The position numbers and the translations under genes were made by a program. DNA of 64,000 nt, from the NCBI GenBank assembly GCA_963971425.1, contig OZ020519.1, forward strand, positions 21,907,397 through 21,971,396, in the 5' to 3' direction. Shown in pieces: positions 7,877 to 62,481 of the stretch. Numbering within the stretch: the first letter of the stretch is position 1; the number at the start of each line of letters is the position of its first letter. The DNA comes from Bryoerythrophyllum caledonicum. Taxonomy: Eukaryota > Streptophyta > Bryopsida > Pottiales > Pottiaceae. The notes beneath the pieces were generated by a model. It did not search any database, had not been told where the DNA came from, and saw nothing but the letters and a program-made list of their open reading frames with translations.

Positions 7877-7985
7877 GGAAGAAGCTATCTTGCGTGCGGT
7901 GAGGCGTGAGCGGTGAGCGGTGAGGCATGAGCAGTGAGCAGTGCGACGTGAGCAGTGAGACATGAGCGGTGACCGGTGAGCGGTA
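7877..7985 (+). repeat. Left TIR and subterminal repeats of element A
   Basis: The first 18 bases (GGAAGAAGCTATCTTGCG) match the reverse complement of the right end at 14 of 18 positions. About 90 bp of degenerate GTGAGCG / GTGAGCAGT tandem repeats follow, again mirrored at the right end. Terminal plus subterminal repeats are usual transposase-binding regions in MULEs; binding here is inferred. Confidence 0.8.
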
Positions 7986-8598
7986 AGAAAAAAGTTTGTA
8001 AAAAGTTTCTTAAAATTGTCACTTTTTCACCATATGGAAGTAACTTTTTGACTATACGAAAGTAACTTTTTTTCTATACGATAGTATTTGAACTACAAGA
8101 ACTGAACATTATATTGGGGAACAAAATATGAAATAAGGATTCCAAGAGGGCCTTATGACCGAAAAAAGGGCACGACAATTTCACGGAAATGACCGTGGAC
8201 CTGAAACACGGTTTATGGTCCTTCAAAAAGTGTTTGAGGTCCATACTTCAACGATGGTCCGAGACGACCATAAACTACCCCGGGGAAAATGTCAGATATC
8301 AAGAACAATGAGGTCTAGGGTTCGATTCCTTGTAAAATCTTATACTTGACGAGATAGGCGATAGTAGGCAATTGCAGGAACGACTCCTACCCCGGGAAAC
8401 AAAAAAAAAACGAAAAAAACGAAAAAAAAAGCCTCTAGAAAAAAATGTGAAAAAATGTGAAAAAAAAAAATCTCAAAAAAACATTGAACGATTCTAGAAC
8501 ACTTCAAATTCTTGCCAATACAGCGGTGGCCCTGTAGTCTCACCGTCTCATATATATTATAGAAAATAGGTACAAGGGATACTTCGGGTTTGGGGTCA
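7986..8598. other. Element A left subterminal non-coding region
   Basis: No gene is visible. The stretch holds a possible RNA polymerase III B box (GGGTTCGATTCC near 8310) followed by an A-rich run at 8400-8470, which could be a degraded tRNA-derived SINE (weak). A short block at 8523-8543 (GGTGGCCCT-GTAGTCTCACC, then an ATATATAT run) recurs at both ends of element B, just beyond the gene 3' ends. Confidence 0.55.
8523..8543 (+). promoter_or_regulatory. Conserved subterminal block, copy in element A
   Basis: The sequence GGTGGCCCT followed by GTAGTCTCACC lies just past the transposase 3' end. Closely similar copies lie past the methyltransferase gene (50355-50377) and past the transposase gene (62055-62077, opposite orientation) of element B. 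It may be a 3'-end processing signal or a protein-binding site; the function is unknown. Confidence 0.45.
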
Positions 8599-9619
8599 CT
8601 AGGTGCAACCCTCTTTCTGAAGCAAGACTTCGAGAACGCGCTTAATCTCGTTGAAGCTAAAACTAGGGGCGTGCATGAAGACATTCACCTCCAGATCTAG
8701 CTCACAAATAATGGTGAAGATAAAATAAAGGTGTTTGCAGTAACACCACTGAGGACGTCTACCAAGAGACTTGCTGGACATCTCCTTGAAAGACAGGCAG
8801 TCACAACTAGGAAATTGACAGATAGAGATCATGTAGTTTGAAACCTTAGTTATGGATTTGGACTCGAACGAGAGAATGCAGCCAAAGGCAGGGTCAGGGA
8901 GCATAAGAAGGTTACTGACTTTTCTAAAAATCGAAAGCGCAGATGCGCAGGTGTTTCGATGTCTTGTGGTTGGGGCCTTCGGATTCCGGCGGACGTTCTT
9001 GCTGAATCTCCGTTTTGGATGCTCATCTGAGTTCACCGGAGTTGGAACAGATTTCAGGTCAAATATTGCACCATCCTGAGAGAACAACTTCCGGGGAGAG
9101 AGCATTACGCGTTCCGCGAGTCAAAAACCTGCATTTCCAAGTCGTAGAATCTCGGCCTTCGTAAGGGACGTGCCAGCTTTCACCGGCCAAACGTCAGGGA
9201 CCGCTGGCTTAGAAATTACCCAGTCCCTTTTTGATCCCATCACACAGCGATTGATGTCATCGTTACAGAAGAAAAACTGCATCTTATCAAGCCGCGTCTT
9301 CTTATAGTTCTTCATCATGCCAGTGTAAGTTGGTGCGGCAGTACTCTTGTTGTTCTGCACAATTCGAGCAGTACACTTCTTCTTCGTACCAACCTGTTGG
9401 GCAAAACAGGCTTTCGCTGATGTCCTCAGAAGCCTAGCAATATGCCACTTGCTCTCGTCACAGGCAGTCTCCAACACACCCATATTACACGTTACCCTTG
9501 ATGATGTTCTTGGTGTAGGGGTATTGGCGAGATACGTTGGAGCTTCCGCAACTATTGAATACACACAATCATCAGTGGTAAGGTCCACGGTAATTCGTGA
9601 AGACGCCCTTGTCGCGACC
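8599..9619 (-). pseudogene. Transposase of element A, C-terminal segment with SWIM zinc finger
   Basis: This is the downstream part of exon 2 of the element A transposase, separated from the rest by gypsy insertions. Its protein matches residues of the intact element B transposase throughout, for example the P-D-V-W-P-V-K block and the SWIM finger C-D-C ... C-K-H-L-Y-F. SWIM fingers (CxC...CxH) are common at the C-terminus of MULE transposases and bind DNA or protein. An in-frame TGA at 9121-9123 precedes the SWIM part, so a protein ending there would lack the finger. The solo LTR at 9620 interrupts the upstream side with duplication CGACC (9615-9619). The gene end at 8599 aligns with the end of the B protein. 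Confidence 0.85.
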
Positions 9620-12159
9620 TGTGAGCCAAATAAACCGCCCCCTAATGGGGTGGCTTATCTTGAACACAAGATCCTACATATGGGATGCAGCCCCTTGTGC
9701 AAACATACTTTAACCATTCATACAAGCATGATGACCCAAGGCGTGGTCACTTAAGAGGGTTCGTTAATAATTAGTGATGTGATGGTTGAATTGAGCCTTA
9801 GGTTGAATCCAACCTTTAGACAAGCGTAAATTCCGCCTCAAAGCTTTGTTTCCAATGTTTTAAAGCTCCATTAGGTTCAATTTTGCCTTGTGAACTTGAT
9901 TAGCACCTTAACCACCAATTCCAGGCCCAAGTGCGACCCTAACAGCAGCAACCAGCAGACAGGCTCCTCTTTTTATGTTAAAAGTTTAATTCTTCATTAT
10001 CTTCGTGATTATGACTCCGTTTTTTACGTTTGTTTTTTGTATTCTTATTAGTTTTTCTTGCTTAACACGATGGCAGCCTTCAATTGATCATTTGACTCGA
10101 CCCTGGACCTCCCAGCCTGCGACCAGCAGTGCACCTTCAACATATGACTTTATTCAAGATCATGCACCACATTCCTATGCATGTATCACATTCATTCACA
10201 CAAAAATCCACCCAGCCTTACTAAGAGTGAGCCTCCTGCTGTGTTCACTTACTAATGGCGCTCTAATCGGTTATTTAGTTGAATATATAGCAAACCCTAA
10301 TTCTACCGAAAAATTGGCAGCGCTTCCGCGTGGTTTTTGTATTTAGAAAATTAGGGTTCAAGTCATACACATGGAATTGAAGAGGTTCGAGGGAGAAAAG
10401 AAAAGGGGCTCCCTGATTTAATTCGGTTCACCCTCCATCCTTAGCCTTCGACTTGCTTGGTCAGCTCGTGATCTTGCTCCTCTTGTTCAGCTCGTGATCT
10501 TGCTCCTCTTGTTCAGCTCGTGATCTTGCTCCTCTTGTTGGTGCTCTTCACTCTGCAGCCCGTATCTTCGTCGTCACAGCTCCGATCCGCGCGTTCTTGA
10601 GCTTGTTGGAAAGCCAACGTTCTAATCTATCTACTCCTAAAATCTTAGCCTAATTGGACAATAACTCCGCTACTGACGAGGGAAAACCTGAGGCCGTATG
10701 AGATCCGCCACCGATCCTCCAGCTGGTCGTCCTCACTCTGCCGCCCGTATCTTTGTCGTCACAGCTTCGATCCGCACGTGTTTGAGCTTGTTGAAAAGCC
10801 AACGTTCTAATCTATCTACTCCTAAAATCTTAGCCTGATTGGACAAGAACTCCGCTACTGACGAGGGAAAACCTGAGGCCGTATGAGATTCGCCACCGAT
10901 CCTCCAGCTGGTCGTCCTCACTCCGCCGCCCGTATCTTCGTCGTCACAGCTCCGATCCGCGCGTTCTTGAGCTTGTTGGAAAGCCAACGTTCTAATCTAT
11001 CTACTCCTAAAATCTTAGCCTAATTGGACAAGAACTCCACTACTGACAAGGGAAAACCAGAGGCCGTATGAGATTCGCCACCGATCCTCCAGCTGGTCGT
11101 CCTCACTCCGCCGGCCGTATCTTCGTCGTCACAGCTCCAATCCGCGTGTTCTTGAGCTTGTTGGAAAGCCAACTTTCTAATCTATCTACTCTCCTGTTTT
11201 CGCAACGATTGAATCACATTCCAGCCCACAGGAGGGGGAAATCTGAACCCTACCTCTCTCTCTCCTTCCACACACCTCTCTCGGTTTCTTAGCTCCTACC
11301 AAACACCTCTCTCACTCCTACCTCCCACCCTTCGAATGAGCGCCCTCCAAGGGGGTAACCCCAATACCCTTGCTCCTTTCTTTGTTCCCAAGGTCGTTCC
11401 CTTCGTCGTTCACAGCCGCCAATTTGGGTGGGCACATTAATGGTCACACTAAACAACTAGTAACTAAAAAGCAATAATTCACTAGCCACCCTTGCATTTA
11501 ACACAAGTGGGTGTCCCACTAACCAAGGAATATCTAAATCTAAACTTTGACTCCATGCCACATGTGTGTGCATGATCTCAATAAGTGAGCTATTAGCTAA
11601 TTTTCAAAGGTGCAAAAATCTAATTTAACCTACCTAAATTGAATTCCCCTTGCTTGGGGTAATTCCTAATTTACTTAGTGATTGATGAGGATTCTTTTCC
11701 ACTTCTTTTTGGACCCTTTTAACTATTTTTTTTAAGGGCTTTTAACGCCCATTCTTTTTTCTTTTCTCCTCACCATCCTCCTTCTTCTTCTCCCATTTTT
11801 TTGGTTTCGTGATTTCTTCATCGTGACCGAATATGGTCTACAACTCGATAGGAGGTAAATTCTTCTCCACCACTACTCATTTTAATTCTTTTCTAATTTT
11901 CTTTTGTCTTTTTTCCCTTCTCTCTTTGCTTTTCTTTTCTGGTTTATTTCCCTTTTTTTTTCTTCCTTTTTGGCTAACTACATAAATTCCGCGATTGCCC
12001 ATAAATGACTCCTCTTTTAGTGAGGGGAAAGGCCACTTGGCCATTTTAATCAAAAAACCACGAGCTAGTCCATGGGATAACCCATTTTCACCACTCATTA
12101 GCCTTAATGGACCCGACGTGAGGTCCATTCATCACCGTGAGCCGTTTTTGCGGCTCACA
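9620..12159 (-). repeat. Solo LTR of the gypsy family, inside transposase exon 2 of element A
   Basis: A 2540-bp LTR runs from TGTGAGCCAAATAAACC to ...TTTTTGCGGCTCACA. It is flanked by the perfect 5-bp duplication CGACC (9615-9619 and 12160-12164) and has no internal region. That is the usual product of recombination between two LTRs. Strand is given in the sense of the full-length copy, whose genes run on the minus strand. Internally it carries four copies of a 185-bp tandem repeat (landmark CGTATCTTCGTCG at 10561, 10746, 10931 and 11116). The perfect duplication suggests a fairly recent insertion. Confidence 0.92.
10540..11190. repeat. 185-bp tandem repeats within the solo LTR
   Basis: About four units spaced exactly 185 bp each contain the landmarks CGTATCTTCGTCGTCACAG, GTTGGAAAGCCAAC and CTGACGAGGGAAAACC. 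Other LTRs of this family have about three (30290-30740) or about six to seven units (13080-14070). Copy number therefore varies, probably by unequal recombination or slippage during reverse transcription. A palindromic GTTGGAAAGCCAAC sits in every unit. The unit is not a multiple of three, so the minus-strand ORFs here are not taken as genes. Confidence 0.85.
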
Positions 12160-12400
12160 CGACCCTAGGACGTGAAACGCTAATCTTGTGTGGACGTTGA
12201 GAATCAAACTCAGATCCTGGAGGAAGGTCAGGCTTCCGTTTCAGGGACATGAAGACTTCCTCTCCTTCCAAATGCGGAGGGCGAGTGCAAAACTCAGCAA
12301 CTCCAGGCATGTTACAGAAAGCCTCATGAAGTGATTTTGAGTTCCCTGAACGTTGAGCAATCCGATGCGCAGCACGAAGTCGAAGCTCTTCCTTCCCAGG
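12160..12400 (-). pseudogene. Transposase of element A, middle segment stranded between two gypsy insertions
   Basis: Only about 236 bp of element A survives here, between the solo LTR and the full-length gypsy copy. Read on the minus strand it gives P-G-K-E-E-L-R-L-R, E-F-C-T-R-P-P-H-L-E-G-E-E-V and K-R-K-P-D-L-P. These match the matching part of exon 2 of the element B transposase (60700-60950). Its edges carry the duplications CGACC (12160-12164) and CCAGG (12396-12400). It joins the segments at 25391 and 9619 in order, showing that the two retrotransposons landed about 240 bp apart in the same exon. Confidence 0.85.
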
Positions 12401-15019
12401 TGTGAGCCAAATAAACCCCCCCTAGTGGGAAGCTTATCTTGAACACAAGATCCTACTTTGAGGGATTCAGCCCCTTGTTCAATCAACAATCAAGACATAC
12501 ATGCATACCTCCCATTTAGATCGCAGCGGTTCATGATGTGTTTAACGCAATGTTTTATCTATCATGAGTGCATTAGGGATGAATTATATCTTTGACTTAT
12601 TGCCGGACTTTGAACCTCTTTATCTTTTGCCTTATGGCTCCGTTTTCTATGTTTTTTTTTTGTATTCTTATTAGTTTTTCTTGCTTAACACGATGGCAGC
12701 CTTCAATTAACCATTTGATTCAATCCTAGACCCACAGCCAACGACCAGCAGTGTTCACTTAACATATGCATTCATTTAATATCATGCACTACACATTCAC
12801 ATGCATTCACACAAGTAATTCCATTCCAACCTTACTAATGACAATTAAACCACCAATTGGTTGAATTTATAACAAAACCCTAATCCTAGTGAAAATTTGG
12901 CAGCGCTTCCGCGTAGTGTTTTTAACTAGACAATTTAGGGTTCCTTCTCCACATGCAATCAAGAGAATAATGAATCAATTGGGAAAGGAAGAAGGCTCCC
13001 TGATCCCGCTCAATTCACCCTCTGCCGTGTTTGTGTTCGTTCTTGTGATTGTGGTCGTCTTCCTCTTCTTGGTGCTCTTCACTCTGCAGCCGATATCTTC
13101 GTCGTCACAACTCCGATCCGCACGTTCTTGATCTTGTTGGAAAGCCAACTTCCTAATCTATCTATTCCTAAAATCTTAGCTTAATACAACTAGAACTCCG
13201 TGACTGACGAGGGAAAAACTGAGGCCGCGTGGGATCCGCCGCCGGTTGCTCCAGCTGGTCGTCCTTGCTCCGCGGCTCGTATCTTCATCTTCGCAGCTCC
13301 AAACCGCACGCTCTTGGGCTTGTTGGAAAGCCAACGCTTTGATCTCTCTCCACCCGAAAAATCAACTTGATTGGAGCAATACTCCGTGACTGACGAGGGA
13401 AAGACCGAGGACCTATGGGATCCGCCGCCGATCTTCCAGCTGGTCGCCCTCGCTCCACGGCTTGTATCTTCGTCGTCGCAGTCCCAAATCGCACGTTCTT
13501 GATCTTGTTGGAAAGCCAACGCTCTAATCTATCTACACCATAAAGCTCAACTCGATTGGAGCAAAACTCCGTGACTGACAAGGAAAAAACCGAGGCCGTT
13601 TGAGATCCGCTGGTTGCCCTTGCTCCGCGGCTCGTATCTTCGTCTTTGCAGCTCCAAACCGCACGCTCTTGGGCTTGTTGGAAAGCCAACGCTTCGATCT
13701 ATCTACACCTAAAAGACCAACTCGATTGGACCGGAACTCCGTGACTGACGAGGGAAAACCCGAGGCCGTGTGTGGTGCGCCGCTGATCCTCCAGCTGGTC
13801 GCCTTCACTCCATAGCTCGTATCTTCGTCGTCACAGCTCCAAACCGCGTGCTCTTGAGCTTGTTGGAAAGCCAACGCGCTGATCTATCTACGCCTAAAAT
13901 CTAAGCTTCATCGGACAAGAACTGTGCGACTGACAAGGGGAAATCTGAGGACAAGTGAGATCCGCCGTTGATCCTCCAGCTGGTCGTCCTCACTCCGCAG
14001 CTCGTATCTTCGTCGTCACAGCTCCAAACCGCGCGCTCTTGAGCTTGTTGGGAAGCCCACGCTCTGATCTACCTACTCGCTAATTTTCGTAACGATTGAG
14101 TTAAATTCCAGCCCACAAGAGGGGGAAATCTGGACCCTACCTCTCTCTCTCTCTCTACACACACGCCTCTCTAACTCCTATCTCACACACTTCGAATGAG
14201 CGCCTCCAAGGGGGGTAACCCCAAAGCCCTTGCTCCCTTCTTGTTCCCAAGGTCGTTCCCTTCGTCGTTCACAGCCGCCAATTTTGGGTGGGCACATTAA
14301 TGGTCACACTAAACAACTAGTAACTAAAAAGCAATAATTCACTAGCCACCCTTGCATTTAACACAAGTGGGTGTCCCACTAACCAAGGAATATCTAAATC
14401 TAAACTTTGACTCCATGCCACATGTGTGTGCATGATCTCAATAAGTGAGCTACTAGCTAATTTTCAAAGGTGCAAAAATCTAATTTAACCTACCTAAATT
14501 GAATTCCCCTTGCTTGGGGTAATTTCTAATTTACTTAGTGATTGATGAGGATTCTTTTCCACTTCTTTTGGACCCTTTCGACTATTTTCTTAAGGGCTTT
14601 TAACGCCCCATTCTTTTTTCTTTTCTCCTCACCATCCTCCTTCTTCTTCTCCCATTTTTTTGGTTTCGTGATTTCTTCATCGTGACCGAATATGGTCTAC
14701 AACTCGATAGGAGGTAAATTCTTCTCCACCACTACTCATTTTAATTCTTTTCTAATTTTCTTTTGTCTTTTTTCCCTTCTCTCTTTGCTTTTCTTTTCTG
14801 GATTATTCCCCTTTTTTTTTTCTTCCTTTTTGGCTAACTACATAAATTCCGCGATTGCCCATAAATGACTCCTCTTTTAGTGAGGGGAAAGGCCACTTGG
14901 CCATTTTAATCAAAAAACCACGAGCTAGTCCATGGGATAACCCATTTTCACCACTCATTAGCCTTAATGGACCCGACGTGAGGTCCATTCATCACCGTGA
15001 GCCGTTTTTGCGGCTCACA
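12401..15019 (-). repeat. 3' LTR of the full-length gypsy element
   Basis: This LTR runs from TGTGAGCCAAATAAAC to CGGCTCACA, 2619 bp. It is almost identical to 22772-25390. Its ends are self-complementary (TGTGAGCCG ... CGGCTCACA around a TTTTTG loop at the right side). It carries the 185-bp repeat family at 13080-14070. Confidence 0.95.
13080..14070. repeat. ~185-bp tandem repeats in the 3' LTR
   Basis: About six units share the landmarks CTCGTATCTTCGTC, TTGTTGGAAAGCCAACGC and CCGTGACTGACGAGGGAAA. Units are more diverged from one another than those in the solo LTRs. The same block is at 23450-24440 in the other LTR. Confidence 0.8.
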
Positions 15020-15163
15020 CATGGCGGCCATCTGGGACAACTCGAAGAGGCAGAGAACCCACTCTTGTTCATGGGCACACGGTCAATATCTACCTTTTTT
15101 GTGTTCGAATGACCCATGGCAGTACCAAAATGTGGAGGTCCACTTGTGAAGGTCGTGAACAAA

Positions 15164-18100
15164 TCACACCTTGTACTCTTTGCATCGGTTGCCCGATGTT
15201 CGCGTGGGGAAATCCTCGCCATTTAGGGTTTGAAGTTGAACGGAGTTGTTGGGGAAGACCTCCTTCACGAGATAGGGTCCCAACCACAAAGCATCGAACT
15301 TCCCTAGAAAATCCAATCTCCTCGCGTCTTGAAGGAGGACTAGCATTCCCGGTCTCAATGACCGGACCTTGTTCCGTTTGTCGAAGGCAATCTTCCTCCT
15401 TCGTTGAATGGCTTCTATGTTTTGGGCGCTCCACCGGCGCATCTCGTCGAGCTCCTCCAATCGTTCTAACCGGTCGGCTAAGGACGTGGCCATGGACCAT
15501 CGTTCGGTCACGGCCACTCGCAGAGAGGGGATCTCGAACTCGATGGGTAAAATGGCTTCAATGCCATACACCAATGAGAAGGGAGTAGCATGGGTGGTCA
15601 CTTTGAACGTGGTTCGGTAAGCCCATAACGCGGCGGGGAGTTTCGTGTCCCAATCCCTCTTGGAATCGGTGACCGTTTTCCTCAAGATGTTCACGAGGGT
15701 TTGATTGACCCGTTCGGTGTGCCCATTGGTTTGAGGGTGATAAGGGGTGGTCTTACGATGATTGATCTTGAACCGGTTGGTCATGGCTTCGATCACCTCG
15801 TTCAAGAAATGCTTCCCCCTATCACTAATGAGGATTTTGGGACATCCGAACCGGGTAATGATTTGCTCGAACAAGAATTTGGCCGCATGATTAGCATCAT
15901 TCGTTTTCACGGCTCGAGCCTCTGCCCACTTGGTGAGATACTCGGTTGCCACCACAATGTGCTTCATCCCACTAGAAGAGCTCGGGTGCACTTCCCCCAC
16001 ATAATCAATACCCCACTTCTCGAATGGGACCAAGGGCAAGGATACTTGTACTGGCATGCTCATTCGAAGGTCATTTCGGGCATACCGTTGACAAACGTCG
16101 CATCGCTTGGTGTACTCATGGGCGTCTTGAAATAACGTGGGCCAATAATAACCCGCACGAAGGACTTTTTGGGCCGTCAAGGTCCCAGAGAAGTGTCCTC
16201 CACACGCACTGTCATGGCAGGCTGAGAGGATCGTGGGAATTTCCACGGACGTCACACATCGACGTAGCAAGCCGTCCACCCCCCGACGGTACAGTTTGCC
16301 CCCTACTATGGTAAAGTGGCGGCTATGGAGGCGAACCTTTCGACGCTCGTTTTTGGACAATGAGTCCGGTAGAAGGTGGGTGGTGAGGAATTCGGCCACC
16401 AGATTGTACCATGAAGGAATGGAGGATACTTTGAACAAGTCCTCATCTATCAAGGCCTCATCAATGGGGACAATACCGGGTTCCTCTGAGAGGCGTGAGA
16501 GGTGATCCGCTTGAAGGTGCATCCGCCCCGGGCGGTATTCCACCGTGTAGTCAAACTCCTCTAAAAGTAAGACCCACCTCGCTAAACGACCACTCAAGTC
16601 CGCCTTGTTGACAAGGTATTTGATGGCCATGTGATCCACGTAGAACACTACGGGGTTGAGTAACAAGTAGTGGCGAAACTTCTTGACCGAAAAGACCATT
16701 GCCAAACACTCACGTTCGGTGGTGGTATAGTTCTTTTCGGCGGGGTTTAATTGCCTACTTGCGAAAGCAATGGGGTGGTCTTTGCCCTTAAGGCCCACAG
16801 GTTGGCACAATGTGCTCCCTACAGCCACCGCCGAGGCATCACAAAAGATATGGAAGGGCAATTCCCAATTTGGGGGCCTCAAGACCGGGTAGGTGGTTAA
16901 TTCTCCCTTCAAAATCTCGAAGGCCTCTTGGCAATGGGAAGTCCACTCGAACTTCACGTTCTTTTGAATAAGTCGAGTAATGGGCATGGACTTCGTGGCG
17001 TAGTCATGGATAACCTCCCGATACCATCCTATGTGCCCTAGGGTTTTTTGTATGTCCTTGACGGTTGTGGGAGGGCTAAACTCCACAATGACCTTCACCT
17101 TGTCGGGATCCGGCTCTCGACCTTCCTTGGAGACTACGAATCCTAGCAAGACTCCCCGCTCTACAGCAAGGAAGATTTTCTCGGGATTGAGGGCAATACC
17201 GGTGCGCCTACACCGTTCAAAACTTTGTCTCACGCACATGAGGTGGTTGTCCTTCCTAGATTGGGTGCTAAAGTCATCAATGAAGACGGTCATGGATTTA
17301 TGCAGGAGATCTGAGAAGGCATACGTCATGGCCCTCTGAAATGCGGAAGGGGCATTACAAAGCCCAAAAGGCATGACCAAATAGATGAACGTGCCCCATG
17401 GGGTAGTGAAGGCGGTCTTGTGATAGTCCTCGGGGGCGATGGAGATTTGATTGTAGCCCGAGTAACCATCCATAAACGTATAAAGCTCATGACCGCCTAC
17501 CTCCTCTAAGATGGTGTTGATAAACGGCAAGGGGAAGTGGTCTTTTTGGGTGTGATGGTTGAGTTTCCTATAGTCAATGCACACCCGTAGCTTCCCATTT
17601 TTCTTTTTAACCAACACCATGGGGGAGACTCAATCGGATATCTCTACGGGTTTAATGAACCCCGCTTGAAGGAGCTTCTCCAATTCGGCCTTGACAATGA
17701 GCTGAAGGTTCGGATTCATGCGCCGCTCCTTTTGTCTAATGGGAATAGTGCCCGGGAGAAGGGGAATGTGATGTTGTGTTACCGCTGGAGGAATGCCCTT
17801 GAGGTCTTTGTATGACCACGCAAAAATGTCCCCAAATTCAACCACTAGTGATTTGTATTTCACCATCTCCTCCTCGGTCAGCCCAACGCCCACCTTGATA
17901 CTACGGACTTCATCATGCTCATGAGAGACCACCATCAATTTCCAATCATCATGATGTACATGTGGTTGTTGGGTAGGTCCTTTGTACCAATCATTTGGAA
18001 CTTGGGGGTATGTTGCCCCCGAACCACTAGCTAGTATACCGGTGGATGTACGTCGGAAGTGGAGAGATGGGTTGAGAGGGCCTTCGTCTCCCAAAACCTC

Positions 18101-28399: not shown

Positions 28400-28447
28400 T
28401 GTAATCAAAGAACGAAGCAGCGAATTATGAGAATAAAAAAGAAACAA

Positions 28448-49776: not shown

Positions 49777-49850
49777 GGGGAAAACTGTTCCATGAGCCTG
49801 GAGCGGGGAGCAGGGAGTAGGGAGCAGGGAAGAAGGGAGCGGGGAGTGTG
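49777..49850 (+). repeat. Left TIR and subterminal repeats of element B
   Basis: The terminal GGGGAAAACTGTTCCATGAG aligns gap-free with the inward-read right end (about 20 of 32 positions). GGAGCGGGGAGCAGGGAG-type repeats with a 7-bp period (GGGAGCG) follow. Element A has the one-base-different GTGAGCG repeat at the same place. Confidence 0.75.
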
Positions 49851-50468
49851 GATTCTATGGAAATTTACAAAAATAAGTATATTCTCTTAGAGGTGGACCA
49901 CAAAAACCAAGAAAATCATGGAGTACCTATTACCGCGGAATTGAATATAAGGTAACATAGGCTTCTCAAAGATTTAAAAAAACACGGTTTAGGGGAAAAT
50001 ATAATATCTCAAAAATGATGATACTTTTACTACTATACAGAAAAAAACATTATACACTATCAGAACTCAGAAGCTCTGATTTTGAACTATGAATAAAACT
50101 TCCACCTAGTTCCTATTTCCAATCTTCAAGGTAATTAATAAAACTAAAATTTCAATTTATTGAGTAAAATATGTTTTCTACAATTATACGAACATCCGCG
50201 AATTTGGACAAAGCCATTGTACAAACACATTAAAGCGAATCTCAGCCAAATTGCATAGAAACTAATCTAGCAACATGCAAATTTCTAAAAGTTCAATAGA
50301 CTCTTGTTAAAGAAAAATGAACTAAGGTTGGAAACAGAAAAGTATAAAACCAAAGTAGTGGCCCTTGTAGTCTCACTACTACAATATATATAGAGGTATA
50401 ACATATTTCACCATAAGATAGCTGGTGAAACTCAAAATCGTTGACAAAAACAACTTAGTAACTACATA
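49851..50468. other. Element B left subterminal non-coding region
   Basis: An AT-rich stretch with no gene follows the left repeats. Near its inner side, at 50355-50377, is the block GTAGTGGCCCTT-GTAGTCTCACT, followed by ATATATAT and shared with element A. Confidence 0.6.
50355..50377 (+). promoter_or_regulatory. Conserved subterminal block, left copy in element B
   Basis: GTAGTGGCCCTT then GTAGTCTCACT lies just past the 3' end of the methyltransferase-like gene. It is matched in inverted orientation at 62055-62077, past the transposase, and in element A at 8523-8543. Confidence 0.5.
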
Positions 50469-53400: not shown

Positions 53401-54800
53401 CTTGAAATGTGCCGGAACATTGGAGGTTGCGATTAGCTGCAACTTATCCAAAGTCATTTCAGGCTTCAAATTCTTGCTCCAATGCTTTGTGACCTGAAAT
53501 TCAAAGAAGACAAAAAATTAGCAAAGCAATCAACGAATCATCCATATGTCAATGGGAAATTGCTTACCTCTTCGAGAATCTTGTCACCTAACTTGGGATT
53601 TGCAACTGCCGAAAACTTCGACCACTGGCCCTTGTACACTTGCAACTTTGCCTTTGCCGCGGCTCTCATTGCAGCGGTGATGCCTAAATCAGTCCTAAGC
53701 TCAGGTGGAGTATTCTCTTCATACAACCTGGCGGCTTCATCAGAGGCATCAGCTATTTCTTGCTGATGCAAGAAACAAGACCTAAATTTATTATTAGGGA
53801 ATAGTGGCAATGCCACACCACAATTGCTGACGACAAATACAAGTGAGACAAGCAAAGAAATATTGAACCACGTACCCGAAAGAGAAGAGAGACGAAAACA
53901 TCGACAGGCAATGGATACCATGACTTAGCGCACCCAGGATTACTCAAATACTTGCGATAATCCTCTGATGAAAGCAAATCCTGAAACGTTTCCAATGGTT
54001 GGCTCCCGATAGCCTTGATGCGATGCAGAATGTGCACAAAATTTGTCTTCACGTGTGAGTTCTCTGTTGCTCTGAAGAAGACACATTTAAAACATAATGC
54101 ATTATGAGAAGTCTGAATAGCATAATACATCAACAACTTGATCAAGGAATGTACACAAAATTCACCTGTTAATATCGTGCATCGCATGAAGGGCCAACCC
54201 AACATTGCCCTTAATATCCAGACAAATGCAATCAACTGAGATATGCCAATCAGCATCAGTCTGGTGCACCCGCTCATTGTAACCCATCCACGCCTGAAAT
54301 CGATGATTTCCATCACATATTTAGAGCTTTCGATTCAGCAAGAAGCTCAAGTGAGGGGAATCCATCAACCCAGACTCGAAGCGATCACTGGCAGCATTCC
54401 AGAGAGGTCCCCACTTCTGCCTGTCCGCATCAGTAATGAAGGATTCTTCACCCAGGCCATTTGTAAGAGATACATAAAAGACAGTAGCTCCAGGTCGGTA
54501 ACCATGAGTAAATTCCGCTTCAAGTCGCTTTATGTCCGAATCCAGAGTTGGTCGAACCAATGGCATATACGAAAGCCTGCAAAGAGGAATGTCAAAACGG
54601 GAGCTTGCCCTTGGAGAAATCCTTAATGTGTCAATTGTTGAAATGCAATTAATCCTCTGAGCATGACGAAGCTCGTCCTCGTTTAAGTGAATGTGGCAAT
54701 CAATCTCCTATGGCCCTGACAACTGGACATCTAGCACTGAACTTCCCCCAACAGAGGGTTCCGGCAAGTGCGACGGATTCTCGGACAAAGATGGATCCAT
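50469..54800 (-). pseudogene. Methyltransferase-like cargo gene of element B
   Basis: Ten exons were inferred: 54800-54166, 54071-53876, 53762-53568, 53493-53278, 53133-52898, 52808-52040, 51958-51620, 51517-51244, 51151-50926 and 50823-50469. All phases join, giving 1147 codons. An Ala/Glu/Lys-rich coiled coil of about 70 residues lies near 52320-52480. The C-terminal domain has V-D-V-P-E-N (motif IV position, 51875-51886), then R-G-A-R-E-K-D and D-C-T-A-S-T-G (motif I) and A-C-R-K-A-G-R-H, the beta-class N6/N4 methyltransferase order. Motif IV lacks the usual P-Y/F/W. Stops occur at 54708-54710 (possibly before the true start), 54321-54323, and 53005-53007 (a Trp in A), so this copy is decaying although its splice sites are kept. 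It has one intron (52809-52897) that A lacks. Confidence 0.78.
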
Positions 54801-55056
54801 GATCTGAAGACAGAAATGGAACATAGTAAGTCGAAGAGTTAGTAATCGAGGTAATGACTCTGGCGAATTTAACACCTGAACAATAGTTCAGACATTGAAA
54901 ATTCTAAAGACAAAACTCTTAATCTTGTCAGACTCATTACTGAATATGAACTGGGTCGGCGCCGGCATAATGAAGAAGTACCGCATTTCGAAAAAATAAG
55001 AACTTAACAGTCAAACATTTGCAATACAGAAATCATATTATCAAAGCAGAACCCAT

Positions 55057-55881
55057 GAGTCGGCACCGACGCTTACAAAGTTGAATCCAAAATTCCGTAG
55101 ATGAGGTAGAATCACGACGGAAATTTTCCAAGAACATTATAGCGTCGGCACTGACGCTGCAAAGACTACATAAGATTCTCCAAAATTCCTCTATGAATCA
55201 TAAAATCATTCCATGCAGAATATCGCCGACATGAAAATTTGAGAATATAGCACATAAAAACGAGCATTTGATCTTACATATCCAGCATCTGATCTAACTA
55301 AAATTGCATTTGATCTCCGACAAAGATTAGCGTCGGCACCGACGCCGACTGATCACAATCGCATGTATCTGCAATTGAAGCAATATCTGAACCAACACTA
55401 GACTATACAAAATCAACTGAAGGTAATCATAACTGAGTCGGCACCGACGGGAGACATTCAAGGAAATAATCCGAGCAAATCATCTAAAACATATGGACGA
55501 TTACCGTCACGATTTTGAGAAGATGGCCAATAAACCTTTACTCAACTCATAAATATTGCACCATGGAACAGTTGCCAAGCTGCAACGAGCGAAAGATCAC
55601 GAATTGTCCATTGATACTTATTTTTAACGAGGAACCTGTGACTGTGACAGACAGAGTCACTCAATTCACCGATGATCTCAAGTTCCTCGAAGGTCGCTTG
55701 GAGGTGCGTCGGCACCGACGCAACCCACCAGCATCAATCACATGCCGATCATCATGGCGAGCCGATACATTTGCGGCACTCGATATCGTACTTTCTGATC
55801 TACTTTCTGGAGCGAGACCTGGAATCAGTTTACTAACACTTCCAGGAAACGACGCAAGGCGGGTAGCGTCGGCACCGACGC
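55057..55881. repeat. Cluster of element B palindromes
   Basis: Six copies of [G/A]GTCGG-CA/CT-[C/T]CGAC[G] within 825 bp are spaced 85-270 bp apart, which is irregular. The central unit CGTCGGCACCGACG is a 6-bp-armed inverted repeat around CA. The clustering in non-coding DNA suggests binding sites for a dimeric protein; this is inference. Confidence 0.7.
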
Positions 55882-57118
55882 TGCAGTTACCAGACTGGAG
55901 ATGATCCAAGTTCCGAGTTCCGGGTTCCCACTTGCTGCTCGACGAGCGAGGAGGTCTCGGAGCTGGAAGTCGTGTACATGTTGTTCGAGGATCAGTTACA
56001 CGAGCGAGCGGCCGTGACGGGGATCGTCGACCGGATCCGAGCACCGAAGATGATTTGAAGCACCAAAGATGATGATGGGGTCTCATATTTCGGCCTCTGT
56101 CCACGAGACTCCCGAGGACACTTTCAGCGATCGAACCAAGCTTCCAAGTCCAGGTCTCAAATACGTCGGTACCGACGGCATGAAGACCACGTAGCAAACT
56201 TTAGATTCTATGAAAGGAACCTCTTAGTTTCTGCTTGGTACCTTCGCAACAAGGATGATACCCTAGTCAACAAACTGAGTGCTTCCAATTTACGAGGCAC
56301 CAAGCAGGATACTTCTCAACCTCAGCGTAGACACAGATGTATATCAAAGAAATTAAACTAAGCTCAAGCCGCGAACTTCTAAAGGCGCTGATGAATACTA
56401 AATGCACTGACTACTTAAGCATTTCTTTACCCAACGGGCCAAATCAGGGTTTCACAGCAAATTCAGGGTTTCACTTAAGGATAATCGAATACTGAAGTGG
56501 CCATTTCCAGATCTTCGACTTCACTGATAGAGGATCAGACTGAAACGAGTGATTTAGATTCGGTGAACATACCCTAGCAGCGGCGCTTCTCCACGGTCTT
56601 CCCGACAGCGCACACGACCTGACTGCGACCTCCTTCGGCTCCGAGGTGTCCTACATTAGTTGCATCCACTTGTTAGTTTTGATATTGATCAAGGACACAG
56701 AAGGGTAAGGAGAGAAAATACAACAACATCCGACTCCTCCAGCCGCACGCACCACGGACCGCCAAGAAGAGAAAGTGTTGCTCAGTATGATGGTGCTAGG
56801 GTTTCATGCAAAGTAACCGATGACTTGTATTTGTAACTGCAATACGGCCTTATATTACTCTGGACCCTATGTATTCAGGCCAGGAAAGACTGTAGTCGGC
56901 AACATATCCTATTTTTGGCCTCATTGAATTACAGTATATATGTTTGGACACTAACTAACAAAATCTAATATTGGATCACCAGTTTAGAATTTGAGCCGCT
57001 AAATTTGTATAGACTGATCTCTATATTTATTGTCAAATTTCACAAAGGATTATTGTTTTTTTTATTGATAGCTAACACTTACCACTTCCAATGCGCTATG
57101 CGGAAATTCCCGGCCCTC

Positions 57119-57397
57119 CTACTCCGAGCCACTAGATTCAAACCTCAACTCCTTTACAGTAGACAAGAGACTTGAAATGTCGATATCTGATGTCCTATCC
57201 TCCTTCAGTCGACACACTCTGCCTGGGCTACTCTCCTTTGAACTGGCTCCTACACCGCTACATTCCTTTTGTTTTAACTCTTTCTGCAATCGATTTCTTG
57301 TAATGGATTTCCTACTGGAGAATCTAAACCCTGTCCTCCGCCTCCCTCTAGTGCCCCTTCCTGAAGGCGTTTTGAATTGCCCATCAAGCATTTGCAC
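57119..57397 (-). CDS. Small basic/serine-rich ORF, possible third gene or 5' exon
   Basis: A 92-codon ORF with a basic first half (R-G-T-R-G-R-R-R-T-G) and an acidic/serine end (T-V-K-E-L-R-F-E-S-S-G-S-E) lies upstream of, and in the same sense as, the methyltransferase-like gene. It is placed like the 85-codon ORF of element A (29043-29300). Similarity between the two is weak and no family is recognised. It could be chance or a 5' exon. Confidence 0.25.
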   Translation of the reverse strand: MQMLDGQFKTPSGRGTRGRRRTGFRFSSRKSITRNRLQKELKQKECSGVGASSKESSPGRVCRLKEDRTSDIDISSLLSTVKELRFESSGSE

Positions 57398-58125
57398 GAA
57401 ATTCTAATCAAGATCTAAGCACAAAATTCATACATCTACTAAGACAAAACCTTCAATCTCCACACTCATCATAATGTTACGGACAGTTTGTATTCCACAA
57501 CTGATCGATCGCTCATTTGTATCCATTGGCAGCAGATGTTTGCTCGCCCTCTAAAATAACCATATTCATTTAATCATGTCCACAGTTCTCCAAGCGTGTA
57601 CAGGCTGTATCCAGACCAATATGTCGCAAAATACTCTTCTACTTGACAATTTGAAATGCCTACCACTCTGGCGCCATCATTTTATAGTGCATTCTTTTAC
57701 TATTACTTCACTGACATAAAAATGAGCTTTAACAAGCATGCTATGTTGTCCGCCTACTTGGTTTACAGCTATTTCAAGTTACCCAACTCGACGTACGTTA
57801 ATTCGAATTCCTGTTTTATTTAGTTATTGCCGCGAATTTGACAAGCAATCCTTATATATCAAATGTATAATAAATGCATTCATGATGATAACCACTTTTA
57901 ATTAACATTCATCCAATTCCAACCCAATCTGGTATACCAGTGGCTGTTCTACAAGATTAGGGTGGATATATTGGTGTCCGACTGAGTTCTCCTTTCTAAA
58001 AATTTTGACTGAATCAATATTAGCACGTTTCAGAAATCTATCTGTTATGCGTAAGAATTCAATCCGTGGAAGTGATACTAAGAGGAGGCTTCTTCTTCCT
58101 CTGGTGTGACAGTAGCTGATACTTC

Positions 58126-61100
58126 ATGGACACAATGGGATTAGGTGATTGTCACAACACTATGGCCGTTATACGGGCTTCTGACAATAGTTTGCCTCTA
58201 ACAATCCCTCTCTGTGAGGATGGATATGCTCACGTTTCAGCTTCACGGTTAAGCCTTAGATTCCATTTGAAAGCTGAGTCCTTGCATCTCGATGAAGAGA
58301 TTTATGATTCTTCCACCGGTTGCATGAGTCATACTATAGGTCAACTTCATACTCGTGATGGTAATGATAGGCTCTGGTTGCTTAAACCTGGAAGATTTAG
58401 AGTTTATGGAATTAGGGACAGTCTTATTGAATTGTCAACAGTAAATGCTACTCATCGAACTTCCCGAACACCAATTCTCTCCCGAGTGAAACTTGAGTTT
58501 GACTCTAACATGGTCATTGTCTTGAGTGATGACTCCGATGCAAATTCTCCAACTCGTAAGTTTGCATCTCTGCAATCATCACTTGAGCGCCCAGTACCAA
58601 GTTCTTCTGCTGCTCACTATCCTGTACGAGATAGTACTCCACCTCGTAAGTCAGCATCTCCGCAATCTTCACAGAGCCCACTACCTAGGTCTTCTGCTGC
58701 CCACTTTCCTGTCCAAGATCGTTCTCCAGCTAGTAAGCTAGCATCTTCGCAATCATCAATTGAGCGACCAGTACGTAGTTCTTCGGCTCCCCATTGCCCA
58801 ATCAAATTTGGGTCATCAGTTGCAGGCATTAAAGATGCTGTGAGTATCGTAGATTCACTCAAACTTCTTCGTCATGCAAAAGGATCTAGAAACATGTTGA
58901 AGAAGATTGACTATAGCACTGTTCGTATAGAAAGAGTGCATTCTCTTCCACCCGAATTCAATGACAACGTCATTTTTGAGTTACCTCCTATCCATGCGAC
59001 CGGAACGTTCTTGCAGGCAAAGTTGATGACTAGCATGGACAAGCGCTACGATGGACATGACTGGACCAAGACAATTACTTCGCATATCAAGAACGAGGCG
59101 GGATTGACGTTTCGTACATCGACTTGCCTCGGCCATCTCCAATGCGATAATGCTAATTGTGCTTACTTGACTCGGGTTCATCGAACTTCACCCGTCAACA
59201 ATACAGAGTGGGAGGGCACGTCGTCATCGTCGTTTACACCTGGCTGTCCTCCTCCACCAGGTTCAACTTTGGTTTGTAAGACTTGTAAGGTATATCCTTC
59301 TTGCATTGCGAGTTGTGATGCAAGAATTTACTATGTATTTGGCAGTTCTAGTATGACACGTGCATGTGTGCATTTAGGAGTTCATGGTCATCCCGTGAAA
59401 GTTGGTGACTACAGAGACTTAATCGATAGGACCAGTGCCCTTCTTGGGGAGCATGTTGAGAGGACCCCAAATGCTACGACCTCATCAATTGTTCTGGAGG
59501 CAAGCAAAGATCTTCTTGGTGAGCTCCTTTTGCGTCCTGAAGGTGCTTCATCAAAGTCATTGAATCTAGAGGAGTTGGTACCTGTTCTTGACAAGTGCAA
59601 GTCCATTACTTCACCTAGTATACGGAATAAAGTCACAACTTTCAGGTGCCTACGGAGGTTTGGCATCATGGATAGTATTACCAAATTGCGGGGCTACAGC
59701 AATTGGGCTTTTATTCAAGAGAATAAATTTCCAGGGCAAGGATCCGATTCAGACAAAATATTTGTGTTTAAGATGGCTGAAGTTGGGCCAGGAAGTGGCG
59801 TAGACTTGGTGAAGCGAATGCAGCCAACAGGCGACCTCGAAGACGCATGGTTGATGTTTGACCATGTAAAGCGTATCAAGCATTGGACCACGATGGCTTG
59901 CCATGTTTATGATTCAACCTATTGCAGGGTGATGTCCATAGCAGTTTGTGATATGCAATCCGAGGATGTTGCAGCTCAATGCATTTTTTGGAGAAATCTA
60001 AATGCAGTATTGGTTCGTCACAACATTCCAGATCCTCAGTTCAAAGGATTTATGGCTGATAGTGCGCAGGCGAATTGGAATGCATTGCGGATCATCTATG
60101 GAAGTGGTGATGCATCCGTTCCAATGATCAATCGAGAACGAACTTGTCTCTTCCACTGGACCCAGTCGTTGGAAAAGCATACGAAGGCCGATATCCGTGC
60201 TGATCTTCAAGATCAACATCGTCAACTCTGCAAACAGTATAAGAATGCAGAAACGTTTTCGGAGGCCGAAACTCGATACTATGCCATTGTCGGATGGTGG
60301 CATTCCTCAGGCGCTACAACCGAAGAGGGGTTGCGGCGATTGGAGTTGTGGCTCGCCTTCTGGCATTTCCGGTACCGTCAGTGGGGTGGATTCATGCAAT
60401 TGGTAAGCTTAATCTTAAATGCATTGTTTTAGGTCCTCAAATACATAGACTCTTTTTTTGTTAATGGTAATGGTTGAACCAGTTTTGTCCTAATTGTTCT
60501 GGCAAATGTGTAGGATCTTAATGATGCTGAGCTTGCCGAGATGCCCTCCTGCAATCTTGCGGAGACAATCCACAACAAATGGCTTCAAGAATCCGGTAAT
60601 CAAGGTAATGACTTGTACGTAGCAACAGTGGATGACTTTGTTAGGGCGTTTATGCAAGTGGTAAAGTATTACCAATTCCTAAAAGGTGATCGTGGAAGCA
60701 ATGGCCCTGGTAAGGAAGAGTTGCTACTAAGGGTTGCCCAACGTTCCGTCTCGCGCTCAAGGAATCCCAAAGTCCTCAATGACGCTATGGCACGAATGAC
60801 CGGGGGTAACGAATTCTGCACTCGTGATCCACACATGGAAGGAGAAGAAATTTTTGGCAGTCAAAAACGCAAACCGGATATGCCTTTGGGTGACGAGCAC
60901 GAGTCCCATCGGCCTGACAAGGTAAACTATTCCTATCCAAGAGTAAATACGAGGTCATCTAGAGCTCGTATTGGTGGACATAGTGTGAGTGACTTCTATG
61001 AGGTTCCACGTTCTACAGTACCTGAAGAAGAAGCCATACCCATGGTTACAGAAGTAATGCAATCGCCCGCTCTATCTCCTTTGTCAAGTCATGTGACGGT

Positions 61101-61974
61101 TGTTCAGGAAACTGTTTGTGATGAGTTGCAATGGCACATTGCAAGACTGCCAAAGACTTCTGCGAAAGCATGTTTTGCTTTACAGGCAATTACCAAGAAG
61201 AAATGCATTGCAAAGATTGTCCAGGACAACAAAAATACAGCTGCTCCTACCTACGTTGGGATGATGGAGAACTACAAGAAGAATAAGGTGGACCACATGC
61301 AGTTTTTTTTTTGCAATGATGATATTGAGCGTTGTGTGAAAGGCACCAAACGCAAGTGGGTTATTTCAAAGCCTGATGTTCCAGATGTATGGCCAGTGAA
61401 AATGGGAACTAATCTTTCGAAGAAAGAAATTTTGGCATTAGAGAATGCTGGATTCCAACTACCTCAACGTGTGGCGATGTCTCCAAGAAGACTATTTGGT
61501 AGCCAAGGTCCTATTTTGGATATCAATTCTTATTCCACTCCAGATTCTCCAGATGAATATCCAAAGAGCATATCAGGGAAGAGTATTCGGCGAAATTCGA
61601 AGGCTCCTACAACAAAACATTTGAACAATTGTGCATCAGCTGTCACCCTCAAATGTCGCATTCTTCAGGTGACCATGATACCCTATCCAGGATTTGGATG
61701 TATCGTTACTCTGGAATCTGGATCAGTCCCAAACTCTCAAGAGTACATGATCACTGTTGGTTCATTTCCAGAATGTTCATGTCCATACTTCAAAGAGATG
61801 TTAACAAAGTCCTTAGGGAAACGAGGACAGTGGACACAATGCAAGCATCTTTACTTCATCTTCACTGTTATTTGTAGTTTGAATTCCCAAGTAGATGTGT
61901 TCATGCATGCCCCAAGCTTCAGCTTTTACGAAGTGAAGCGTGTTTTAGAATCTGGGATAGTAAGGCACTTATAA
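58126..61974 (+). CDS. MULE-like transposase with GCM/WRKY-type and SWIM zinc fingers (element B)
   Basis: Exon 1 is 58126-60402 and exon 2 is 60514-61974; the 111-bp intron is GTAAGC...TGTAG, phase 0. The protein is 1245 aa with no internal stop. It has a Ser-rich variable stretch with three diverged repeats (about residues 145-225) and a Cys/His region at about 325-430 (T-C-L-G-H-L-Q-C, C-K-T-C-K, V-H-G-H-P-V) of the WRKY/GCM kind known in MULE transposases. In the core, Asp 596 (V-Y-D-S-T-Y) and Asp 645 (F-M-A-D-S-A-Q-A-N-W) precede C-L-F-H-W near 672; the third acidic residue is not certain. A SWIM finger C-S-C ... C-K-H-L-Y-F lies at about 1180-1203. It should cut and join element ends in the nucleus. 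The ATG at 58126 aligns with the start chosen in A. Confidence 0.87.
60403..60513 (+). other. Transposase intron of element B
   Basis: A short GT-AG intron (donor TTG|GTAAGC, acceptor TGTGTAG|GAT) separates the catalytic region from the C-terminal part. Its position is shared with element A, where the intron is six times longer and carries palindromes. No palindrome is present here. Confidence 0.85.
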
Positions 61975-62414
61975 TCTTCATTGGAGTTTTTAGTGTTTTC
62001 TATACTTCAGATTTGGAATTCTGTATGACAATGGTCATATATATTTGAATATGGAGTGAGACAAAAAGGGCCACTACCAAGTTTTTGGAATCTTATATGT
62101 GTAATTTTTCCCAAAAAAGTGTTTCTTTTTTTCCAAGTCCATTGGTTGAGTCTTGAAATATGGTCGCAAATCATGTGTTTCAACCCCCCAATTTGTTGAA
62201 TTTCTGGATATTTCATAAGAAATGCAACATCTTAAAATCCTCGAAATCAATTTTCAACCATAGCCATAAGTCCCATGATGAACACGGTAATAGGCATCCG
62301 TATTCTAATTATGAAGGCATCGATAATCAATTTATTTTTCAAATATATTTAACATGCTTTTTTAATTAATATATATTTTTAGAATTTCAGGAGAATTGTT
62401 CCTAGTTCTGGCTC
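61975..62414. other. Element B right subterminal non-coding region
   Basis: AT-rich, with no gene. It contains the inverted copy of the conserved block at 62055-62077 (AGTGAGACAAAAAGGGCCAC) soon after the transposase stop codon. Confidence 0.6.
62055..62077 (-). promoter_or_regulatory. Conserved subterminal block, right copy in element B
   Basis: Read on the minus strand it is GTAGTGGCCCTTTTTGTCTC, followed by ACT and an AT-rich run. It mirrors the left copy at 50355-50377. Confidence 0.5.
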
Positions 62415-62481
62415 CCCGCTCCTATTTTCCCCGCTCCCTGCTCCCCGCTCCCCGCTCCCCGCTCACAAACTAGCTTCGCTC
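62415..62481 (-). repeat. Right TIR and subterminal repeats of element B
   Basis: CTCCCCG-type 7-bp repeats are followed by the terminus ACAAACTAGCTTCGCTC. They mirror the left end. The 9-bp duplication GGAAGAACA starts at 62482. Confidence 0.78.

What the first reader, a model, noticed from the sequence alone, without database searches (positions are those of the whole stretch)
7877..62481. Two diverged TIR transposons that pair a MULE transposase with a divergently transcribed DNA-methyltransferase-like gene
Elements A (7877-39441) and B (49777-62481) have related terminal repeats, 9-10 bp target duplications, and the same two large genes in head-to-head order. The proteins are clearly homologous but well diverged, so the pairing is old and kept in the family, not a single capture. 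I know of no described MULE lineage with a beta-class N6/N4 methyltransferase-like partner; the closest ideas are the anti-silencing VANC genes of VANDAL MULEs and the TET/JBP genes linked to fungal KDZ transposons.
Basis: partly seen in the sequence, partly recalled or inferred. Interest (0 to 1): 0.88.

Follow-up and report, generated by a model that had tools for sequence, protein, structure and literature searches.

The report
Jumping genes carrying a dead-looking methyltransferase
Two related, partly decayed jumping genes from an unidentified eukaryote each carry a transposase and, reading away from it, a second gene that looks like a bacterial or phage DNA methyltransferase whose catalytic residues have been replaced, suggesting a transposon helper protein that binds DNA rather than methylates it.

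Summary
Elements A (7877-39441) and B (49777-62481) are DNA transposons. Each interrupts a 38-bp minisatellite, and the shift in repeat register (10 and 9) equals the exact flanking duplication. Their inverted termini hold arrays of 7-bp units, GAGCGGT in A, GAGCGGG in B.

Both carry head-to-head genes. Gene 1 is a Mutator-like transposase (1245 aa in B, open after one intron) with conserved D, D, CxxH, E and a SWIM-like motif, but only weak Pfam support. Gene 2 (about 1030 aa) has an N-terminal DGNHR domain resembling ParB at motif level and a C-terminal beta-class N6/N4 methyltransferase fold (HH P=9.7e-6).

A ParB-like plus methyltransferase gene opposite the transposase is already described for Sola1-1_Ec32 of Ectocarpus (PMC12477816); I found no Mutator-type example in the listings seen. 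And of 14 retrieved relatives covering the catalytic motif, 13 have D[IVL]PE and one DILE, none DPPY, so this branch is probably catalytically dead.

A's gene 1 and B's gene 2 are broken. Linkage beyond these copies rests on one indirect clue; the host-genome search did not complete. Verdict: new variant of a known kind.

The parts
6761..7876 (.). 38-bp minisatellite array, left of element A
   Evidence: TRF; register
7867..7876 (.). target site duplication of A, left copy (GACGAGCAGC)
7877..39441 (.). Element A, MULE-like transposon inflated by LTR insertions
7877..7984 (+). left terminal inverted repeat of A, with 7-bp units GAGCGGT
8602..28486 (-). gene 1 (transposase) of A in pieces: 28486-26270, 25596-25390, 12421-12158, 9654-9124, 9120-8602; in-frame stops at 28091-28093, 27887-27889 and 9121-9123; split by LTR elements
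9620..12160 (.). LTR-type insertion in A (related to the LTRs of 12401-25391)
12401..25391 (-). nested Ty3-type LTR retrotransposon, LTRs 12401-15020 and 22772-25391 (99.8% identical); not part of the transposon's own gene set
29492..31729 (.). second LTR-type insertion in A, between the two genes
33186..38297 (+). gene 2 of A (ParB-like plus methyltransferase-fold), 7 exons: 33186-34012, 34098-34296, 35587-36003, 36087-36938, 37298-37641, 37731-37998, 38092-38297; exon 5/6 junction out of frame
33864..33878 (+). ParB-like signature position of A gene 2 (DGNHW; DGNHR in most listed relatives)
37370..37381 (+). motif IV position of A gene 2, DIPE instead of DPPY
37980..38000 (+). motif I position of A gene 2 (DAFASTG)
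39301..39441 (-). right terminal inverted repeat of A, 7-bp units GAGCGGT on the minus strand
39442..39451 (.). target site duplication of A, right copy
39442..43659 (.). 38-bp minisatellite array, right of A
49276..49776 (.). 38-bp minisatellite array, left of B
49768..49776 (.). target site duplication of B, left copy (GGAAGAACA)
49777..62481 (.). Element B, MULE-like transposon
49777..49846 (+). left terminal inverted repeat of B, with 7-bp units GAGCGGG
50926..54800 (-). gene 2 of B, 9 exons: 54800-54166, 54071-53876, 53762-53568, 53493-53278, 53133-52898, 52808-52040, 51958-51620, 51517-51244, 51151-50926; three in-frame stops (54708-54710, 54321-54323, 53005-53007)
54300..54314 (-). ParB-like signature DGNHR of B gene 2
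51875..51886 (-). motif IV position of B gene 2, DVPE instead of DPPY
51244..51265 (-). motif I position of B gene 2 (LDCTASTG); the N6_N4_Mtase Pfam match spans this part
58126..61974 (+). gene 1 of B, transposase, 1245 aa, exons 58126-60402 and 60514-61974, open; D596, D645, C674-x2-H677, E776, SWIM-like C-x-C...C-x-H from residue 1180
62411..62481 (-). right terminal inverted repeat of B
62482..62490 (.). target site duplication of B, right copy
62482..63997 (.). 38-bp minisatellite array, right of B

Best explanation
A and B are two old, diverged copies of one Mutator-like DNA transposon family of a eukaryote. Gene 1 is the DDE transposase; it moves the element and leaves a 9-10 bp duplication (inferred from anatomy). 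Gene 2 is the element's own accessory protein: an N-terminal module resembling ParB joined to a beta-class N6/N4 methyltransferase fold, the domain order of phage ParB-methylases and of the Ectocarpus Sola1-1 accessory protein. In this branch the catalytic motif has been replaced by a conserved D[IVL]PE, so I infer that it no longer methylates DNA but keeps the fold as a binding module. Most likely it acts in a VANC-like way: it sits on DNA of its own family, with the 7-bp terminal arrays as candidate sites, and keeps the element expressed or presents its ends to the transposase. Shown: elements, duplications, gene order, fold of the C-terminus (by profile), motif replacement in the retrieved set. 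Inferred: ParB fold, loss of catalysis, binding sites, function.
For: Register-proved insertions. The gene pair head-to-head in both copies, five of six A introns of gene 2 in the same column as B introns. Codon-position bias in both genes. D1 in 39 of 41, D2 in 36 of 38, C of CxxH in 34 of 36 and H in 33 of 34 covered rows; PF00872 0.0068 and SWIM 0.058. Methyltransferase: Pfam N6_N4_Mtase 5.5e-5 in B and 3.5e-5 in A; PHROG DNA methyltransferase 2.2e-5; PDB DpnA 0.0016; HH against 13 phage methylases P=9.7e-6, score 43.8 against a maximum of 21.7 in 40 column shuffles. Three phage proteins among the longest tblastn matches (E 0.1, 0.2 and 2, not significant alone) are fusions with an N-terminal ParB_N match and N6_N4_Mtase. 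ParB-like exon: 616 relatives, DGNHR in 104 of the 120 listed. Motif IV D[IVL]PE in 13 of 14 relatives covering it, DILE in one; canonical [DNS]PP[YFWH] in 0 of 34, against 13 of 13 phage methylases with DPPY. Terminal 7-bp arrays differing by one base between A and B. VANC proteins bind short motifs in tandem arrays (PMC5735166, passages).
Against: ParB identity rests on 12 columns around DGNHR (HH probability 9%, P=0.0035; above 40 of 40 shuffles); no ParB_N Pfam hit in 67 members, none in the clean B model, and no PDB ParB hit. The best phage tblastn E-value (2e-4) is to a methyltransferase without a ParB match (phage JL22). The methyltransferase match covers the motif I half only; 66 columns in HH. 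No Pfam MULE hit. Arrays at the very ends could equally be transposase sites. No binding, expression or chromatin data. Only two linked copies seen, each with one gene broken, plus one indirect clue of linkage elsewhere. Active relatives with DPPY may lie outside the retrieved set, which was chosen by similarity to A and B. The host is unknown, and so is whether it silences transposons by DNA methylation.
Confidence: 0.5

Rival explanations
1. Gene 2 is an active DNA methyltransferase: the ParB-like domain finds the element, the methyltransferase places N6-methyladenine or N4-methylcytosine there to mark or de-repress it. The Ectocarpus authors suggested that such proteins bind and epigenetically modify their own transposon.
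For: Methyltransferase fold retained with motif IV followed by motif I in beta-class order; D and one P of DPPY kept; published proposal for a protein of this domain order (PMC12477816).
Against: DPPY replaced by D[IVL]PE (13 of 14) or DILE (1 of 14), and the glycine-rich FxGxG of motif I (recalled consensus) mostly by TASTG-like residues; the aromatic residue of motif IV is missing (its role is recalled knowledge).
Confidence: 0.2
2. Gene 2 is a transposition cofactor, like maize mudrB: it binds the 7-bp arrays and helps the transposase synapse or integrate, with no role in silencing.
For: 7-bp units sit at both termini facing inward, where transposition proteins bind; maize mudrB is described as apparently required for integration (PMC6446971, passages).
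Against: Terminal arrays may be bound by the transposase alone; no functional data either way.
Confidence: 0.25
3. Gene 1 belongs to another DDE superfamily and only resembles MULEs.
For: No Pfam MULE hit in 41 members; PF00872 and SWIM below cut-off; [quoted passage not shown]
Against: 9-10 bp duplications, CxxH between D2 and E, SWIM-like C-terminus fit MULEs.
Confidence: 0.12
4. Gene 2 is a passive passenger captured by the element (Pack-MULE-like cargo).
For: MULEs can capture host gene fragments (PMC6446971 passages); B gene 2 has three stops.
Against: Present in both 31%-identical copies with shared introns and constrained codons; 616 relatives of its first exons with a conserved signature.
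Confidence: 0.06

Closest known systems
ParB-like plus DNA methyltransferase accessory gene of Sola1-1_Ec32, Ectocarpus (PMC12477816, passages seen; it cites Iyer 2011 and Petroll 2025 for green and red algal transposons, neither read here)
   Same: Same domain pair, similar size (1104 versus about 1030 aa), on the strand opposite the transposase of a DNA transposon
   Different: Transposase superfamily is Sola-1 there and Mutator-like here; that paper predicts an enzyme making N4mC or N6mA, while here the catalytic motif is replaced. Sequences not compared (not held)
VANDAL MULEs with VANC anti-silencing genes (PMC5735166 passages, PMC10398659 abstract)
   Same: MULE with extra gene(s); VANC binds short motifs in tandem arrays
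   Different: No word beginning with 'methyltransferase' in PMC5735166; VANC arrays lie in non-coding regions of the element, here arrays sit in the TIRs; sequences not compared
Maize MuDR (mudrA/mudrB)
   Same: Two-gene MULE with a second gene apparently required for integration (PMC6446971 passages)
   Different: mudrB is described there as of unknown function; no comparison made here
Phage ParB-methylase fusions, e.g. Streptococcus phage EJ-1 ORF37
   Same: ParB_N then N6_N4_Mtase in one protein; profile match in the methyltransferase part
   Different: Phage proteins are about 420 aa with DPPY (13 of 13); here about 1030 aa with D[IVL]PE and a long extra middle part
Fungal transposons linked to TET/JBP genes (Iyer et al. 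2014; reference entry only)
   Same: Transposon linked to a DNA-modification gene
   Different: Different enzyme class; not tested here

Membership tests
Mutator-like elements (MULE) | Target site duplication of 8-11 bp (PMC6446971) | tested here: met
   10 and 9 bp, proved by array register
Mutator-like elements (MULE) | Terminal inverted repeats (some families lack them) | tested here: met
Mutator-like elements (MULE) | DDE triad with CxxH between D2 and E (CxxH recalled, not from a call) | tested here: inconclusive
Mutator-like elements (MULE) | SWIM or other zinc finger in the transposase | tested here: inconclusive
   C-x-C-x(n)-C-x-H in A, B and L001; Pfam SWIM 0.058 in B, 3.7 in L001, none in A; none when B's whole second exon was scanned
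Mutator-like elements (MULE) | Profile hit to MULE transposase families | tested here: not met
   No Pfam MULE at E up to 5 in 41 members; only PF00872 Transposase_mut 0.0068 in L001, below its cut-off, and not in B. Membership at Pfam level is therefore not claimed; MULE-like is
Beta-class N6/N4 DNA methyltransferase | N6_N4_Mtase fold with motif IV before motif I | tested here: met
   Pfam 5.5e-5 (B) and 3.5e-5 (A), both under the gathering score 26.7; PHROG 2.2e-5; PDB DpnA 0.0016; HH P 9.7e-6. The statistical match lies on the motif I half
Beta-class N6/N4 DNA methyltransferase | Catalytic (D/N/S)PP(Y/F/W/H) | tested here: not met
   D[IVL]PE in A, B and 13 of 14 covering relatives, DILE in one; canonical motif in 0 of 34
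ParB-methyltransferase transposon accessory proteins | ParB-like DNA-binding domain N-terminal | tested here: inconclusive
   DGNHR signature; HH prob 9%, P 0.0035, above 40 of 40 shuffles; no ParB_N in 67 members or in the clean B model
ParB-methyltransferase transposon accessory proteins | Encoded opposite the transposase inside a DNA transposon | tested here: met
   in both copies
VANC-type anti-silencing protein | Removes silencing from own family by binding arrayed motifs | not testable with these tools
   7-bp terminal arrays seen; no binding or methylation data

The most novel reading that the evidence does not exclude
A lineage of Mutator-type transposons, with many relatives in public genome and metagenome data, carries a pseudo-methyltransferase: a phage-type ParB-methylase turned into a catalytically dead, sequence-specific binding protein that recognises the element's own 7-bp terminal arrays and shields it from host silencing, co-diverging with those arrays.
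Probability: 0.25. Interest if true: 0.82.

Novelty: new variant of a known kind. Interest (0 to 1): 0.6.

Why it matters
If true, a ParB-like/methyltransferase architecture resembling that of phages has been taken up by at least two unrelated transposon superfamilies (Sola-1 in a brown alga, Mutator-type here), which points to a general helper function for DNA transposons. The replaced catalytic motif makes a direct test possible: whether such helpers work by methylation or only by binding. It could also give a counterpart to VANC outside Arabidopsis for the question how transposons fight silencing.

Tried and rejected
Chance matches of the minisatellite as the source of the duplications: rejected by register. 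A single recent capture of gene 2: rejected by 31% identity with shared introns. A third element in the gap 43660-49275: no duplication, phase offset 29, but its left flank fits the unit poorly. Target preference for the minisatellite: both insertions lie in arrays, but arrays are about 37% of the non-element window by my arithmetic, so two of two is not evidence.

Led nowhere: relatives in viral contigs, none for gene 1 or for the ParB-like exon of gene 2; genome contigs, searched for gene 1 only, one locus, L001, a 4.1-kb contig in a cyanobacterial MAG that carries gene 1 and is probably eukaryotic contamination; plasmids, none for the gene 1 core of L001; Rfam at gathering threshold, none; NCBIfam and PHROG scans of the ParB-like exon, only weak hits (4 of 67 members to a ParB-like PHROG, best 0.082); PDB with the gene 1 profile, nothing relevant. 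Pfam DUF1015 touched the DGNHR region weakly (11 of 67 members, best 0.032; 0.02 with a mistyped sequence), but not in the clean B model. Host taxon: not identified.

Contig clue: gene 1 relative P0009 and gene 2 relative P0064 each come from one contig, both listed with a longest contig of 9903 bases. Among 63 gene 1 and 119 ParB-exon lengths, three values are shared, 2022, 2690 and 9903, and none with the 34 methyltransferase hits; short lengths may match by chance, so this is suggestive only.

Papers: no paper on a MULE with a ParB or N6/N4 methyltransferase partner was seen in the listings (20 of 32 papers listed; 6 of 7; 4 of 4; 25 of 345; 20 of 2,289; 8 of 4,696; 10 of 14); I saw titles and abstract beginnings, and the library lacks most subscription journals. 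Iyer 2011 and Petroll 2025 were not read.
Full report
What is there. Element A spans 7877-39441 and element B 49777-62481. Both interrupt arrays of a 38-bp minisatellite. The flanks repeat GACGAGCAGC (A) and GGAAGAACA (B). Because exact short repeats are cheap inside a minisatellite, I tested register: at A the right flank restarts 10 positions early and at B 9 positions early, exactly the lengths of the repeats; the gap at 43660-49275 shows 29 and no repeat, though its left flank fits the unit at only 65%. The inverted termini hold 7-bp units facing inward: 12 of the 16 GAGCGGT in A and 7 of the 9 GAGCGGG in B lie in the termini.

A is larger than B because three LTR-type stretches lie in it: a full Ty3-type retrotransposon at 12401-25391 with 2.62-kb LTRs 99.8% identical, and stretches at 9620-12160 and 29492-31729. 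Without them A is about 13.8 kb by my arithmetic, close to the 12.7 kb of B.

Gene 1. In B it reads 58126-60402 joined to 60514-61974, 1245 residues, no stop. In A the same protein is in pieces on the minus strand, with in-frame stops at 28091-28093, 27887-27889 and 9121-9123 and with LTR elements inside. The protein search listed 63 relatives, with only 8000 candidates scored. In an alignment of B with 40 of the 63, D596 is kept in 39 of 41 rows, D645 in 36 of 38, C674 in 34 of 36 and H677 in 33 of 34 covered rows. E776 and a C-x-C...C-x-H SWIM-like pattern follow in B, A and L001. Profile support is weak: no Pfam MULE hit in 41 members at E up to 5 and none for SWIM in B's whole second exon; trimmed pieces gave Transposase_mut (PF00872) 0.0068 in L001 but not in B, and SWIM 0.058 in B, 3.7 in L001, none in A. 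I therefore call it MULE-like.

Gene 2. Splice models give 7 exons in A and 9 in B. Five of the six A introns fall in the same alignment column as a B intron; the sixth is 17 columns off in a poorly aligned stretch. The proteins are 31% identical. B has three in-frame stops, A one junction out of frame. The C-terminal part is a beta-class N6/N4 methyltransferase: Pfam 5.5e-5 in B (8e-5 with a mistyped junction) and 3.5e-5 in A, both under the gathering score; PHROG DNA methyltransferase 2.2e-5 in B and 3.3e-4 in A; PDB DpnA 0.0016. tblastn against phages gave 244 records at E up to 10. The best E-value, 2e-4, is to a methyltransferase of phage JL22 in which Pfam finds no ParB. Of the longest matches three proteins of about 420 aa (E 0.1, 0.2 and 2) were tested: two pass ParB_N and one is just under its cut-off, and all three pass N6_N4_Mtase. 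A profile of 13 phage methylases that match EJ-1 ORF37 over nearly its whole length (three of them tested with Pfam) matches the family's methyltransferase profile at P=9.7e-6 over 66 columns around motif I, with score 43.8 against a maximum of 21.7 in 40 shuffles.

The N-terminal part has a DGNHR signature. Its profile search found 616 relatives, of which the 120 best are listed; 104 of the 120 have DGNHR. Against 17 phage ParB-type domains only the 12 columns of the signature align (probability 9%, P=0.0035; score 24.4 against a maximum of 19.1 in 40 shuffles). No Pfam ParB_N hit appeared in 67 members; DUF1015 matched 11 weakly (best 0.032); the clean B model gave no family at E up to 1. 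ParB-like is thus a motif-level call, made more likely by the published ParB-like/methyltransferase pairing in transposons.

The altered active site. 34 relatives of the methyltransferase part were found. Read (26 of the 34 aligned with A and B), 14 relatives cover motif IV: 13 read D[IVL]PE and one DILE; A and B read DIPE and DVPE. None of the 34 holds [DNS]PP[YFWH] anywhere, whereas all 13 full-length phage methylases do. A motif I pattern like GDIVLDCTASTG is found in 27 of 34. The replacement is the same in many relatives, so it looks kept rather than random decay. The set was gathered by similarity to A and B, so active relatives could be missing.

How it most likely works. Transposition by gene 1 is inferred from anatomy. 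For gene 2 I prefer a DNA-binding helper that has lost methylation and acts on its own family, either against silencing as VANC does or at the ends during transposition. VANC proteins bind short motifs in tandem arrays (PMC5735166, passages; PMC10398659, outline and abstract). The 7-bp terminal arrays, one base apart between A and B, are candidate sites; this is inference.

What is known. PMC6446971 (passages), a survey of MULEs, has no word beginning with 'methyl' in its held text (it does speak of hypomethylation by VANC). I saw no paper on a MULE with this partner in the listings of seven searches, which mostly show only part of the papers found. So the kind is known; the Mutator-type carrier and the replaced catalytic motif are new as far as I could see.

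Limits. The host was not identified and its genome could not be searched. Linkage of the two genes rests on two copies in this window and one suggestive contig length. In each copy one gene is clearly broken, so neither is an intact autonomous element.

Noticed in passing
window 12401-25391: A Ty3-type LTR retrotransposon with long 2.62-kb LTRs holding 185-bp tandem repeats; LTRs 99.8% identical, long gag and pol ORFs, so it looks recent.
   Followed up: partly
window 1-5500: Part of a second Ty3-type element with gag, RT, RNase H and integrase pieces in several ORFs.
   Followed up: partly
window 43660-49275: A 5.6-kb stretch between two minisatellite arrays without a target duplication and without Pfam hits in the four ORFs tested; origin unclear.
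   Followed up: partly
window 6761-7876, 39442-43659, 49276-49776, 62482-63997: 38-bp minisatellite arrays, strongly A/G-rich on the plus strand, one of about 111 units; function and host distribution unknown.
   Followed up: no
L001 1-4101: A contig of a cyanobacterial MAG (AVDCRST_MAG81) carries a spliced eukaryote-type gene 1 relative, so the bin is probably contaminated.
   Followed up: partly
elements A and B: The decay is complementary: B has an open transposase and a broken gene 2; A has a nearly open gene 2 and a broken transposase.
   Followed up: partly
P0001 (855 aa): A gene 1 relative whose N-terminal roughly 200 residues seem duplicated in tandem (second, 35% match to the same part of B).
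   Followed up: no
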